Assembly: GCF_000027005.1 (NCBI RefSeq)
Contig: NC_012963.1
Span: forward strand, 1,674,001 to 1,738,000
DNA from: Komagataella phaffii GS115
Taxonomy: Eukaryota; Ascomycota; Pichiomycetes; Pichiales; Pichiaceae
Direction: 5' to 3'
Length of the DNA stretch: 64,000 nt
The notes beneath the pieces are model-generated. The model searched no databases, was not told the DNA's origin, and was given only the letters and a program-made list of their open reading frames with translations. Shown here one piece after another: positions 26,334 through 60,096 of this stretch (the first letter of the stretch is position 1; every line of letters begins with the position of its first letter). The position numbers and the translations under genes are program-made.

Positions 26334-27461
26334 ATGTCTTACTCAAAGGATATAGTTTTGGAAAAGCTTGCTAGTTTGGAAGAAACCCAAATTAGCATTC
26401 AATCCATCGGACAATGGTGTCTATTTCACCATAGACATGCTCCCGAAACCGTCGCCATTTGGAGTGAATTTGTAGGTTCCACCCAAACCAAGAAGCTTGC
26501 GGGGCTCTATCTGGCCAATGAAATTATTCAGCAATCGAGAGCTAAACGAAAGACTACATTTCTAGATGAGTTTGCCAAGGTGCTACCATCTACTTTAGAG
26601 CAAATCTATCCGAGTATGATCTCTACTCACCAGGCGAAACTGAAGCGAATTATAGATGTCTGGAGTCAACGTAAGATATTTGACTCAAACCTGATTCATA
26701 GACTTTATCAGAGCATACAGGATCAAAAAGCTTATAACGGTTTATCCTCGTCTAGTTCAAATTCTCCACCAATCAATTCTGGGGATTTGGCTCCTGAGAT
26801 TTCCTCTCTATCAACGCTGTTCAACAAAATCTCAACATTGAAGTCTTCAACGTCTCTGGTCGTTAATCAGATAAATGAACAATACTCAAGTCTATTCGAC
26901 TCTGAAACATTACCAGGAACTGATATTTATTTAAAACAACTTGGAGATCTATCAACCTTAATCACCTCAGCCAGATCAAAGTCACAGGAGACCCAAGAAT
27001 TACGAGAGTCCATAATAAATGAGCTGAAGAAACTGATTCAAGTCCAAGAGTCGTGGATTACGAAAGATGCAGAGTCTTCGGGTTCTCTGGATGAGAAACT
27101 TGCCACAGTTCAGCAGAAAGAATCAGAGTTGAAAGAATTCATAAACGATGTAGAAGAAGAAGATGGTGTACCTCAATATGCCGCTTCAAGTGATGAAGAA
27201 GGCGACGAAAATGTGTCAAAAAAGAGAAAAATGGAGAGCCCACCAACTGAAACAGTTGATTCTGGCGAACAGCCAACTAACCCAGTCCACCCTCAGCTTT
27301 CCTCCATCTTAGAGAGTCTATCTAGAACAACTGGACTAACACCAGAACCTGCTTCTACTTCGGACGAGTCAGCAACAGCAACGCAGAAGCAAGATGAAAC
27401 ACCTGTTTCTTCATCTATAAATCCTGCTCTAGCCAGTTTGCTGTCCAAACTTAACGGTTAA
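26334..27461 (+). CDS. RTT103: CID-domain transcription termination factor Rtt103
   Basis: A 375-residue protein with an N-terminal CTD-interacting domain (residues 1-135; FVGSTQTKKLAGLYLANEIIQQSR and LKRIIDVWSQRKIFD). A helical coiled region (150-280) follows, then an acidic, Ser/Thr/Pro-rich tail. This is the layout of Rtt103, which binds Ser2-phosphorylated Pol II CTD and works with the Rat1-Rai1 torpedo exonuclease at gene 3' ends. Pcf11 also has a CID but is longer and carries zinc fingers, absent here. Confidence 0.88.
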   Translation: MSYSKDIVLEKLASLEETQISIQSIGQWCLFHHRHAPETVAIWSEFVGSTQTKKLAGLYLANEIIQQSRAKRKTTFLDEFAKVLPSTLEQIYPSMISTHQAKLKRIIDVWSQRKIFDSNLIHRLYQSIQDQKAYNGLSSSSSNSPPINSGDLAPEISSLSTLFNKISTLKSSTSLVVNQINEQYSSLFDSETLPGTDIYLKQLGDLSTLITSARSKSQETQELRESIINELKKLIQVQESWITKDAESSGSLDEKLATVQQKESELKEFINDVEEEDGVPQYAASSDEEGDENVSKKRKMESPPTETVDSGEQPTNPVHPQLSSILESLSRTTGLTPEPASTSDESATATQKQDETPVSSSINPALASLLSKLNG

Positions 27462-27656: not shown

Positions 27657-30188
27657 ATGACATTTCCCTTGCTACCTGCATACGCAAGTGTTGCAGAGTT
27701 TGATAATTCCTTGAGTTTGGTAGGAAAAGCCGTGTTTCCCTATGCTGCTGACCAGCTGCACAACCTGATCAAGTTCACTCAATCGACTGAGCTTCAAGTT
27801 AATGTGCAAGTTGAGTCATCCGTTACAGAGGACCAATTTGAGGAGCTGATCGACAACTTGCTCAAGTTGTACAATAATGGTATCAATGAAGTGATTTTGG
27901 ACCTAGATTTGGCAGAAAGAGTTGTCCAAAGGATCCCAGGCGCTAGGGTTATCTATAGGACCCTGGTTGATAAAGTTGCATCCTTGCCCGCTAATGCTAG
28001 TATCGCTGTGCCTTTTTCTTCTCCACTGGGCGATTTGAAAAGTTTCACTAATGGCGGTAGTAGAACTGTTTATGCTTTTTCTGAGACCGCAAAGTTGGTA
28101 GATGTGACTTCCACTGTTGCTTCTGGTATAATCCCCATTATTGATGCTCGGCAATTGACTACTGAATACGAACTTTCTGAAGATGTCAAAAAGTTCCCTG
28201 TCAGTGAAATTTTGTTGGCGTCTTTGACTACTGACCGCCCCGATGGTCTATTCACTACTTTGGTGGCTGACTCTTCTAATTACTCGTTGGGCCTGGTGTA
28301 CTCGTCCAAAAAGTCTATTCCGGAGGCTATAAGGACACAAACTGGAGTCTACCAATCTCGTCGTCACGGTTTGTGGTATAAAGGTGCTACATCTGGAGCA
28401 ACTCAAAAGTTGCTGGGTATCGAATTGGATTGTGATGGAGACTGCTTGAAATTTGTGGTTGAACAAACAGGTGTTGGTTTCTGTCACTTGGAACGCACTT
28501 CCTGTTTTGGCCAATCAAAGGGTCTTAGAGCCATGGAAGCCACCTTGTGGGATCGTAAGAGCAATGCTCCAGAAGGTTCTTATACCAAACGGTTATTTGA
28601 CGACGAAGTTTTGTTGAACGCTAAAATTAGGGAGGAAGCTGATGAACTTGCAGAAGCTAAATCCAAGGAAGATATAGCCTGGGAATGTGCTGACTTATTT
28701 TATTTTGCATTAGTTAGATGTGCCAAGTACGGTGTGACGTTGGACGAGGTGGAGAGAAACCTGGATATGAAGTCCCTAAAGGTCACTAGAAGGAAAGGAG
28801 ATGCCAAGCCAGGATACACCAAGGAACAACCTAAAGAAGAATCCAAACCTAAAGAAGTCCCTTCTGAAGGTCGTATTGAATTGTGCAAAATTGACGTTTC
28901 TAAGGCCTCCTCACAAGAAATTGAAGATGCCCTTCGTCGTCCTATCCAGAAAACGGAACAGATTATGGAATTAGTCAAACCAATTGTCGACAATGTTCGT
29001 CAAAATGGTGACAAAGCCCTTTTAGAACTAACTGCCAAGTTTGATGGAGTCGCTTTGAAGACACCTGTGTTAGAAGCTCCTTTCCCAGAGGAACTTATGC
29101 AATTGCCAGATAACGTTAAGAGAGCCATTGATCTCTCTATAGATAACGTCAGGAAATTCCATGAAGCTCAACTAACGGAGACGTTGCAAGTTGAGACTTG
29201 CCCTGGTGTAGTCTGCTCTCGTTTTGCAAGACCTATTGAGAAAGTTGGCCTCTATATTCCTGGTGGAACCGCAATTCTGCCTTCCACTTCCCTGATGCTG
29301 GGTGTTCCTGCCAAAGTTGCTGGTCGCAAAGAAATTGTTTTTGCATCTCCACCTAAGAAGGATGGTACCCTTACCCCAGAAGTCATCTACGTTGCCCACA
29401 AGGTTGGTGCTAAGTGTATCGTGCTAGCAGGAGGCGCCCAGGCAGTAGCTGCTATGGCTTACGGAACAGAAACTGTTCCTAAGTGTGACAAAATATTTGG
29501 TCCAGGAAACCAGTTCGTTACTGCTGCCAAGATGATGGTTCAAAATGACACATCAGCCCTGTGTAGTATTGACATGCCTGCTGGGCCTTCTGAAGTTCTA
29601 GTTATTGCTGATAAATACGCTGATCCAGATTTCGTTGCCTCAGACCTTCTGTCTCAAGCTGAACATGGTATTGATTCCCAGGTGATTCTGTTGGCTGTCG
29701 ATATGACAGACAAGGAGCTTGCCAGAATTGAAGATGCTGTTCACAACCAAGCTGTGCAGTTGCCAAGGGTTGAAATTGTACGCAAGTGTATTGCACACTC
29801 TACAACCCTATCGGTTGCAACCTACGAGCAGGCTTTGGAAATGTCCAATCAGTACGCTCCTGAACACTTGATCCTGCAAATCGAGAATGCTTCTTCTTAT
29901 GTTGATCAAGTACAACACGCTGGATCTGTGTTTGTTGGTGCCTACTCTCCAGAGAGTTGTGGAGATTACTCCTCCGGTACCAACCACACTTTGCCAACGT
30001 ACGGATATGCCCGTCAATACAGCGGAGTTAACACTGCAACCTTCCAGAAGTTCATCACTTCACAAGACGTAACTCCTGAGGGACTGAAACATATTGGCCA
30101 AGCAGTGATGGATCTGGCTGCTGTTGAAGGTCTAGATGCTCACCGCAATGCTGTTAAGGTTCGTATGGAGAAACTGGGACTTATTTAA
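27657..30188 (+). CDS. HIS4: Trifunctional histidine biosynthesis protein His4, probable mutant allele
   Basis: An 843-residue fusion that catalyses steps 2, 3 and 10 of histidine synthesis. After an N-terminal region come a HisI-type phosphoribosyl-AMP cyclohydrolase (about 245-320; RRHGLWYKGATSG, ELDCDGDCL, CHLERTSCFG), a HisE-type pyrophosphohydrolase (about 325-395; REEADELAEA), and a HisD-type histidinol dehydrogenase (about 415-843) with GPGNQFVTAAK, the zinc-site Gln and His in SQAEHGIDSQ, and YAPEHL. Codon 557 (29325-29327) is CGC, Arg, in the VAG-R-KEIVF strand where relatives have Cys; this equals the C557R lesion reported for strain GS115. The frame is otherwise intact. A Gcn4 site lies upstream. 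Confidence 0.97.
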   Translation: MTFPLLPAYASVAEFDNSLSLVGKAVFPYAADQLHNLIKFTQSTELQVNVQVESSVTEDQFEELIDNLLKLYNNGINEVILDLDLAERVVQRIPGARVIYRTLVDKVASLPANASIAVPFSSPLGDLKSFTNGGSRTVYAFSETAKLVDVTSTVASGIIPIIDARQLTTEYELSEDVKKFPVSEILLASLTTDRPDGLFTTLVADSSNYSLGLVYSSKKSIPEAIRTQTGVYQSRRHGLWYKGATSGATQKLLGIELDCDGDCLKFVVEQTGVGFCHLERTSCFGQSKGLRAMEATLWDRKSNAPEGSYTKRLFDDEVLLNAKIREEADELAEAKSKEDIAWECADLFYFALVRCAKYGVTLDEVERNLDMKSLKVTRRKGDAKPGYTKEQPKEESKPKEVPSEGRIELCKIDVSKASSQEIEDALRRPIQKTEQIMELVKPIVDNVRQNGDKALLELTAKFDGVALKTPVLEAPFPEELMQLPDNVKRAIDLSIDNVRKFHEAQLTETLQVETCPGVVCSRFARPIEKVGLYIPGGTAILPSTSLMLGVPAKVAGRKEIVFASPPKKDGTLTPEVIYVAHKVGAKCIVLAGGAQAVAAMAYGTETVPKCDKIFGPGNQFVTAAKMMVQNDTSALCSIDMPAGPSEVLVIADKYADPDFVASDLLSQAEHGIDSQVILLAVDMTDKELARIEDAVHNQAVQLPRVEIVRKCIAHSTTLSVATYEQALEMSNQYAPEHLILQIENASSYVDQVQHAGSVFVGAYSPESCGDYSSGTNHTLPTYGYARQYSGVNTATFQKFITSQDVTPEGLKHIGQAVMDLAAVEGLDAHRNAVKVRMEKLGLI

Positions 30189-30313: not shown

Positions 30314-31489
30314 ATGGAATTACATGTCCCCTTGGGTTCTGAGATTGTCTTACCCGGTGGGGAAAGAGCCATACTCAAGTTCGTAGGAAATGTGGAGTCA
30401 AAGTCTGGGATTTTTGCTGGTGTTGAACTGATTGGTCAAATGAGTGGAAAAGGAAAGAATTCTGGAGAGTTTAAGAACGTGCAGTACTTTACCACCAAAG
30501 TCCCTAATTCAGGCATATTTTTGCCCTATCAAAGACTTCTGGAGACAAGTAACATGCAACGACTTCAAGCAGAGACACCAACGAAGACAAAACGAAATGT
30601 TTATGTATCTCGCTCACCATTAGCTGTTTCCAATCAACAAGGGTTGAAACGATCATCAAAGGAGAGTAGCCCGAGCACTGTTGCAGGCAATGAAGGACAA
30701 TTGCACAGTTTGAAGACTGAAAATACCCATCTTTCACAGAAATGTTTGAAGTTAGAAACACAGTTACAAGAGTGCACGGAAGTTCTCGAGTCTATGGAGA
30801 AGGTCATTAAAGACCATTACGAACCAGCCTTCAACCAAATGGAGAAAGATTTGTCTGAGAAGAATGAAAAAATTTCCAAGCTAAAGGTTTCATTCGACGA
30901 ACAGAAGACCGAACTGCTGGATATTATTGATTCCCTTGAAAAACAAGCGTCAGAAACTGAACAGCTCTACACTAAAGAATTGAAAAGGTTGAGGGAGGAA
31001 TGTGCTGCTTATAAAAACAAGGATACTGCAAAGGAAACGAACGAACTCCAACGTCAGCTGAAAGTCAAGGAAAAAATGTGTCAAGATTGGGAGTTGAAAT
31101 ATACTCAACTTAAGGATTCAAAAAGTAAAGAGGAAAACGATATAATTCAAGGATACCAGCGTGAAATCGATGATTTGAAAGCAAAATTATCAAGCTCTCA
31201 GAAAGCTCAACCTGAAAAAAACACGGAAATAGAAGAGCAATTACAACGATTGAAAGCAGAAAATCGATCTCTGCAACAACAGCTTGAGACCGCCAGAGAG
31301 AAGGAAAAAATACAACCATTGACCTCAACAACCACAGAGCAATCAACCTTGCTGGATGAGAACGGGAACTTGCAAATATTTGTTCCAAAAAACTCTGATC
31401 CCGCAAATGGAAGAAAAAAATGGTGTGGTCTTTGTGAAAGGGAAGGACATGATAGCGTTCAATGCCCTTTTGAGAATGATATGTTTTAA
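30314..31489 (+). CDS. BIK1: CAP-Gly microtubule plus-end protein Bik1 (CLIP-170 family)
   Basis: A 391-residue protein with an N-terminal CAP-Gly domain (5-75; GIFAGVELIGQMSGKGKNSG, then YFTTKVPNSGIF), a basic Ser-rich linker, a long coiled coil (125-340) and a C-terminal CCHC zinc knuckle with C371, C374, H379 and C384. This is the CLIP-170/Bik1/Tip1 layout. The CAP-Gly domain binds EEY/F tails of tubulin and EB1, and the knuckle binds partners such as dynein regulators. It differs from many CLIPs in having a single CAP-Gly, as in yeast Bik1 (440 residues). Confidence 0.9.
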   Translation: MELHVPLGSEIVLPGGERAILKFVGNVESKSGIFAGVELIGQMSGKGKNSGEFKNVQYFTTKVPNSGIFLPYQRLLETSNMQRLQAETPTKTKRNVYVSRSPLAVSNQQGLKRSSKESSPSTVAGNEGQLHSLKTENTHLSQKCLKLETQLQECTEVLESMEKVIKDHYEPAFNQMEKDLSEKNEKISKLKVSFDEQKTELLDIIDSLEKQASETEQLYTKELKRLREECAAYKNKDTAKETNELQRQLKVKEKMCQDWELKYTQLKDSKSKEENDIIQGYQREIDDLKAKLSSSQKAQPEKNTEIEEQLQRLKAENRSLQQQLETAREKEKIQPLTSTTTEQSTLLDENGNLQIFVPKNSDPANGRKKWCGLCEREGHDSVQCPFENDMF

Positions 31490-40989: not shown

Positions 40990-41177
40990 GTTGGTAGTAA
41001 TGTTGACACAGATTTATCCGAGCATAATTGGTGATTAGGTAACTACACTCTTCTAGAGACTCTTTCCACTGCCGATCAATGGTGTTGGTATTCAAATTAT
41101 CTGACCCTAGTTGTGATGCCCCAGGACAAAACAACTTAAACTTTCTATACTACTACTTACAAAACTAAAAACGTAAT

Positions 41178-41251
41178 GGTCCCTTGGCCCAGTTGGTCAA
41201 GGCATCGTGCTAATAACGCGGGGATCAGCAGTTCGATCCTGCTAGGGACCA
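41178..41251 (+). tRNA. tRNA-Ile (AAU anticodon)
   Basis: A complete 74-nt cloverleaf without intron: acceptor stem GGTCCCT pairing with AGGGACC, D arm with AGTTGGTCAAGG, anticodon loop CTAATAA with AAT at 41212-41214, variable region, T arm with GTTCGATCC, and discriminator A. A T-rich Pol III terminator (CTTTTTG) follows within a few bases. The sequence closely resembles yeast tRNA-Ile(AAU). Confidence 0.97.
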
Positions 41252-41786
41252 TACTTTTTGCAACTAGTTTTTCCCTTCCTACCTAATACCTCCTTATTCA
41301 ACAGCAATACACCACAGACTTGGCGCCAAATTCACGTCACTCGTTAGTCGCTAACAATAGAATATGCATCTAAAAATTCCCTATATTCCATATAAAGTTA
41401 GGGTCCAAGAGCTCAATAGCAATCAATTGCAGCACTCTCCAGCAACATGAACTGCACCGCCAGAGCAGAGCAGGAGCAACCTTCTAGAGCGACAGAAAAA
41501 CAAAAAATCTGAGTTATCACTGCCTGGCACATCCCAGGGCATCGATCATCCGCGTCCAAAAATACATATTCCACGTTCTGTGCATCTCTAGCTTTGGTCA
41601 CACAGCCACCAATAAGAGCTCAGCCCTGTGTATTTTCATGATCCTATGCATCAAGTCCAGAAACCAGCCCTGCAGATGAAAAATTCGCGAACTAAAAATA
41701 GGTTGATGATCTCGATGTATTCACTATTAAAGGAAACGTAGATCCGCTTAATATATCAGCAACTTCAACGTCTCATATTAATCAAG
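41252..41786. other. Intergenic region after the tRNA gene
   Basis: 535 bp with the short Pol III terminator at its left end and the promoter of the SUR7-family gene at its right. No LTR-like terminal repeats or integrase fragments were seen, although tRNA flanks often host Ty elements. The minus-strand ORF of 62 codons here has no family features. Confidence 0.6.
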
Positions 41787-59448: not shown

Positions 59449-60096
59449 CTAATTCTTTCTGGCAGCAGGCGGAGGACTACTTGGTGGCTGGTACCCAGGA
59501 AGCTCATCGTCTATGTTTGAAGAGGAAGTACCCTCACCAGTAGTGTCATATATTCTATCTGCATCGCTTGGGGTATTCAGATTTGATGACACAGGAGGTG
59601 GATGAGATGGACGTGTATAGCCAAAATCATCATCACTTGGCGTTTGCGTCGGTCGATTTGGAGTCGATTCAAAGTCATCATAAGCCCCTGGTGTATGGTA
59701 TGCTTGAGGGGGATACGTTTGGGTGCTCGTTGACCCTGTTGCTGCTGTTGCCATTGGTTTGGCAGGGACGTAGTGGGGATTGTAGTGAAACACTCCCTCA
59801 GCATCGTAATAGCCTGCGTCTTCCGCCCTGGCCTGCGATGAGTAGACGGGTACAGAATCATTAATACCGCCTGTATTGTACTGTTGTTGCGACTGGCCGT
59901 AAGAGGGTGGAGTCAACCACGCAGTTCCTCGGACAGGTTTCTGGCCTCTTCGCATTCTCCTCAAATTTGTTCGGCACATCAGCAAAAGAAAACCAATAAT
60001 AAATACGATGAATAAAGCAAAGAAGGCCCATCTAGCATTGCTATTGGACCAACCATTAGAAACAATCCATCTTTTGTTTAAATATATGCTAGCCAT
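59449..60096 (-). CDS. RCR1/RCR2-family membrane protein
   Basis: A 215-residue single-pass protein. The membrane span is at about 23-41 (RWAFFALFIVFIIGFLLLM), followed by a basic RRMRRGQKPVRGTAWLTPPSYGQSQ block that is the Rcr signature. The rest is Pro/Gln/Tyr-rich, with a PPSY motif and LPGYQPP near the end as likely docking sites for the Rsp5 ubiquitin ligase WW domains. Yeast Rcr1 (ER, chitin deposition) and Rcr2 (endosome/vacuole) have this layout; I cannot say which it equals. Confidence 0.85.
   Translation of the reverse strand: MASIYLNKRWIVSNGWSNSNARWAFFALFIVFIIGFLLLMCRTNLRRMRRGQKPVRGTAWLTPPSYGQSQQQYNTGGINDSVPVYSSQARAEDAGYYDAEGVFHYNPHYVPAKPMATAATGSTSTQTYPPQAYHTPGAYDDFESTPNRPTQTPSDDDFGYTRPSHPPPVSSNLNTPSDADRIYDTTGEGTSSSNIDDELPGYQPPSSPPPAARKN

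What the first reader, a model, noticed from the sequence alone, without database searches (positions are those of the whole stretch)
29325..29327. HIS4 codon 557 is Arg (CGC): the GS115 his4 lesion
Counting from the HIS4 ATG at 27657, codon 557 reads CGC. It sits in the histidinol dehydrogenase part, in a VAG-x-KEIVF strand where yeast HIS4 and bacterial HisD have Cys as I recall them. C557R is the published cause of histidine auxotrophy in strain GS115. A single T-to-C change from TGC would give it. The frame is otherwise intact, so HisI and HisE functions may survive. This also dates the sequence to that strain lineage.
Basis: partly seen in the sequence, partly recalled or inferred. Interest (0 to 1): 0.85.

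Follow-up and report, generated by a model that had tools for sequence, protein, structure and literature searches.

The report
Known GS115 his4 C557R mutation
This is the already published single-residue change that makes the industrial yeast strain GS115 unable to make its own histidine; it identifies the strain lineage but is not new.

Summary
HIS4 runs 27657-30188 (+, 843 aa), and codon 557 (29325-29327) is CGC, Arg. Three papers give C557R as the his4 lesion of Komagataella phaffii GS115 (PMC4974788, PMC6894112, PMC7003935). Cys stands at this column in 119 of 119 other listed HIS4 relatives, 119 of 120 further HisD-containing proteins and 79 of 80 close bacterial HisDs. None of these 331 homologues has Arg. 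So the site is probably a packing site, not a catalytic thiol, and Arg most likely spoils the Rossmann-like NAD+ domain. The published slow growth of C557G strains fits. Further markers in the same genome, RAD5 Phe752, RCR2 Asp196 (inside this window) and RVB1 Lys8, match GS115 and not X-33; KM71 and SMD strains were not excluded. No wild-type Komagataella sequence was found here, so the parental Cys codon rests on the papers and on inference. Already known; low interest.

The parts
27657..30188 (+). HIS4, trifunctional histidine biosynthesis protein (PRA-CH, PRA-PH, histidinol dehydrogenase), 843 aa, frame intact
29325..29327 (+). codon 557, CGC (Arg); published C557R lesion of GS115
   Evidence: papers
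28935..30167 (+). histidinol dehydrogenase domain (PF00815, residues 427-837) holding the lesion
   Evidence: residues; same domain at G000:C1:1702935-1704167
28293..28772 (+). PRA-CH (HisI) and PRA-PH (HisE) domains, residues 213-372; 42 of 42 columns that are invariant in the other 119 sequences are kept
59449..60096 (-). RCR2 homologue (PF12273), 215 aa; residue 196 (codon GAC, 59509-59511) is Asp, not the Glu reported for X-33 and Y-48124
   Evidence: marker from PMC7003935

Best explanation
The codon is the known his4 C557R missense mutation of K. phaffii GS115, in a genome of that strain. Arg replaces a small uncharged residue (Cys in fungi, one plant chain and close bacteria, Val in more divergent HisDs) in the Rossmann-like domain I that binds NAD+. 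It most likely breaks packing or folding of that domain, so the last pathway step (histidinol to histidine) fails while the N-terminal HisI and HisE domains stay intact in sequence. Shown here: the codon, its domain, its conservation and the strain markers. From papers: C557R is present in the auxotroph GS115, and C557G strains grow slowly without histidine. Inferred: the steric and charge mechanism, survival of HisI/HisE activity, and the parental codon TGC.
For: CGC at codon 557. Published C557R in GS115. No Arg in 331 homologues: 317 Cys, 12 Val, 2 Ser. RAD5 residue 752 is Phe, as reported for GS115. RCR2 residue 196 is Asp and RVB1 residue 8 is Lys, not the X-33 states. The residue of chain 5vlb aligned to 557 is Cys190 by offset and lies in domain I (160-275); the main text of the structure paper has no word beginning with 'cys', and the NAD+, Zn and histidinol contacts in the parts read do not include it. 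GS115 is rescued by HIS4 but not by HIS4 with H670A or H737A, as expected if the HisD step is what is missing.
Against: No wild-type Komagataella HIS4 DNA was found, so the ancestral codon was not read directly ('near' mode; the tool warns that records close to the window's genome may be left out). No structure model could be made, so burial of residue 557 is inferred. The rescue experiment does not show that HisI/HisE of the R557 protein still work. GS115 is reported with 74 SNPs, so the causal link rests on the papers and on HIS4 complementation.
Confidence: 0.96

Rival explanations
1. The Arg is a natural polymorphism of wild K. phaffii that does not matter, and GS115 auxotrophy lies elsewhere.
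For: 26 of 120 HIS4 sequences have at least one departure at an otherwise invariant column, so a singular departure alone is not proof of damage.
Against: Papers list it as a change of GS115 against its parent; HIS4 complements GS115; another change at the same residue, C557G, is reported to go with slow growth without histidine.
Confidence: 0.02
2. The window is from X-33 or another relative of GS115 rather than GS115 itself.
For: X-33 shares nearly all GS115 SNPs. Other his4 strains such as KM71 and the SMD series exist; their further markers were not tested.
Against: X-33 and Y-48124 are reported with Gly at 557 and RCR2 D196E, and X-33 also with RVB1 K8E; here the residues are Arg, Asp and Lys.
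Confidence: 0.04
3. The loss is of a catalytic cysteine.
For: Cys is nearly invariant in the HIS4 relatives and close bacterial HisDs examined.
Against: Val stands there in 12 of 12 divergent relatives, all keeping the catalytic His pair, and in PDB chains 4g07 and 9lbv. A paper title seen in a reference list says the conserved HisD cysteines are not involved in catalysis. C557G strains are reported as slow growers without histidine, not full auxotrophs.
Confidence: 0.04

Closest known systems
his4 C557R allele of K. phaffii GS115
   Same: Same gene, codon number and residue, with RAD5 Phe752 in the same genome
   Different: No difference among the features tested
HIS4 C557G of X-33 and Y-48124 (PMC7003935)
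   Same: Same codon; a Gly codon, GGC, is one base from CGC
   Different: Gly not Arg; reported slow growth without histidine instead of auxotrophy; RCR2 D196E and RVB1 K8E absent here
Histidinol dehydrogenases in the PDB (5vlb, 6an0, 1k75, 4g07, 9lbv)
   Same: HisD family by sequence, E 5.3e-79 or lower
   Different: Cys (5vlb, 6an0, 1k75) or Val (4g07, 9lbv) at the aligned position; the other 6 of 11 matched sequences were not printed

Membership tests
GS115 his4 lesion | Arg at HIS4 residue 557 | tested here: met
GS115 his4 lesion | Cys codon at 557 in the parent strain CBS7435 / NRRL Y-11430 | not testable with these tools
   no match in plasmids, E. coli genomes or phages; papers report Cys
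GS115 his4 lesion | histidine auxotrophy | not testable with these tools
   phenotype from papers only
GS115 strain | RAD5 S752F | tested here: met
   residue 752 = Phe, codon TTC; marker
GS115 strain, not X-33 or Y-48124 | RCR2 D196 and RVB1 K8 unchanged | tested here: met
   markers; RVB1 told from RVB2 by recall and because only L004 of the two has Lys at residue 8
GS115 strain, not KM71 or SMD | intact AOX1, ARG4, PEP4, URA3 | not tested
   genotypes seen only
Fungal HIS4 trifunctional protein | PRA-CH, PRA-PH and Histidinol_dh domains in one chain | tested here: met
   all over cut-off
Histidinol dehydrogenase | catalytic His pair (H670, H737) | tested here: met
   His in 120 of 120 sequences at both columns; named

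The most novel reading that the evidence does not exclude
Residue 557 is a packing site that evolution fills with Cys or Val. GS115's Arg kills by bulk and charge, and X-33's Gly is a same-codon partial revertant of CGC (one base, GGC) rather than an engineered wild-type gene. If so, Val or Ser at 557 should restore growth.
Probability: 0.6. Interest if true: 0.2.

Novelty: already known. Interest (0 to 1): 0.1.

Why it matters
It identifies the strain behind the sequence and explains its histidine requirement, the basis of HIS4 selection in this yeast. The small practical points are that X-33 may not be a true wild-type HIS4 control (PMC7003935, against PMC6894112), and that relatives carry Val at this position.

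Tried and rejected
Codon usage as a sign of a recent mutation: inconclusive, CGC is 5 of 34 Arg codons in HIS4. Rarity of a singular departure: not decisive, 26 of 120 sequences have one or more. Wild-type Komagataella DNA in plasmids, E. coli genomes and phages: no match in 'near' mode. Loss of a catalytic thiol: set aside because of Val in divergent relatives. The E. coli HisD structure paper was not held. Three text searches on the HisD cysteines led me to open one paper for it, which gave only a title in its reference list.

Full report
Observation. HIS4 lies at 27657-30188 on the + strand and gives 843 residues with no internal stop. Codon 557 is 29325-29327 and reads CGC, Arg, in VAG-R-KEIVF. 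A 29-base pattern around the codon, with C or T at its first base, occurs once in the window's own genome G000, with C. G000 has 4 contigs and 9,216,378 bases, with the window at C1:1674001-1738000.

Literature. PMC4974788 (passages and section 15 read; [quoted passage not shown] PMC6894112 (passages) says GS115 is His- through C557R, confirmed by resequencing. PMC7003935 (passages, sections 11 and 16) reports C557R in GS115 and C557G in X-33 and Y-48124, and finds the latter two slow-growing without histidine. PMC6894112 instead calls X-33 a derivative whose HIS4 was reverted to wild type by site-directed mutagenesis. The two accounts disagree and my data cannot settle it.

Conservation. The protein search found 2299 HIS4 relatives and listed the best 120, one of them identical to the window protein; the other 119 all have Cys. 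Many of these are records without an organism name; the named ones are yeasts. A search with the HisD part alone scored 8000 and listed 120: 119 Cys, 1 Ser (P0121). These three sets are the closest relatives and so lean to Cys. I then took 12 of 60 listed rows from a spread of plasmid-collection hits, picked for taxonomic range: 12 of 12 have Val, and all 12 have both catalytic His residues. Nine of the 12 are annotated hisD, two lie where the record shows no gene, and one is annotated hpsN. Of 11 matched PDB sequences five alignments were printed: 5vlb, 6an0 and 1k75 have Cys, 4g07 and 9lbv have Val. So the 331 homologues outside the PDB give 317 Cys, 12 Val, 2 Ser and no Arg.

Controls. The window departs at one of 204 columns invariant in the other 119 sequences, and that one is residue 557; the 54 such columns in residues 1-400 are all kept. 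But 26 of the 120 sequences, the window's included, show at least one departure in the same leave-one-out test, so the count alone is weak evidence. Codon usage is not informative. It was not read from a wild-type sequence, because none was found.

Strain. PMC4974788 names RAD5 S752F in GS115; in G000 the RAD5 homologue has Phe (TTC) at 752, where the aligned RAD5 chain 6l8n has Ala. PMC7003935 reports that X-33 and Y-48124 share the GS115 SNPs apart from residue 557, so RAD5 marks the lineage, not the strain. It reports RCR2 D196E in Y-48124 and X-33 and RVB1 K8E in X-33. Here RCR2, inside this window at 59449-60096 (-), has Asp at 196, and the RVB1 homologue (L004) has Lys at 8. RVB1 was told from RVB2 by recall of the family and because only L004 of the two has Lys at residue 8. 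Together with Arg557 this is the reported GS115 combination. KM71 and SMD strains also carry his4 (PMC4047484, passages) and were not excluded.

Mechanism. The Medicago structure paper is PMC5585171 (passages, sections 5 and 8); that chain 5vlb is its enzyme is recalled, and fits an offset of 32 between chain index and paper numbering, which turns H336 into His368 and Y134 into Tyr166 (Y134 counted by hand on the row; H336). With that offset the residue aligned to 557, chain index 158, is Cys190. It falls in domain I (residues 160-275), the Rossmann-like domain whose cleft holds NAD+. The main text has no word beginning with 'cys', and the NAD+, Zn and histidinol contacts in the parts read do not include this residue. 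The title of Teng et al. 1993, seen only in a reference list, says the conserved cysteines are not involved in catalysis. With Val in the divergent relatives and Gly leaving partial growth, the likeliest cause of failure is a bulky charge placed in the core of domain I (inference). PMC9157411 (passages, section 16) shows that HIS4, but not HIS4 with H670A or H737A, restores growth to GS115. That fits a missing HisD step but does not prove that HisI and HisE of the R557 protein work. A structure model could not be obtained.

Verdict. The finding is right, well read and already published. It is useful for identifying the strain and otherwise ordinary.

Noticed in passing
window 59449-60096 (-): RCR2, whose D196E change marks X-33 and Y-48124 in PMC7003935, lies in the same window as HIS4, so both strain markers can be read from one window; here it is Asp.
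   Followed up: yes
P0099 (HIS4 relative): Five otherwise invariant Ser columns read Leu, as expected of a yeast that reads CTG as Ser but was translated with the standard code (interpretation recalled).
   Followed up: no
HisD family, column of HIS4 residue 557: The histidinol dehydrogenases examined fall into a Cys group and a Val group at this column; the other conserved Cys (520) is also replaced in 11 of the 12 divergent relatives.
   Followed up: partly
[quoted passage not shown] the two statements do not agree.
   Followed up: no
window 41177-41252 (+): One tRNA-Ile (anticodon AAT) in the window.
   Followed up: no
window 26334-27461 (+) and 30314-31489 (+): HIS4 neighbours: a CID-domain protein upstream and a CAP-Gly protein downstream.
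   Followed up: no
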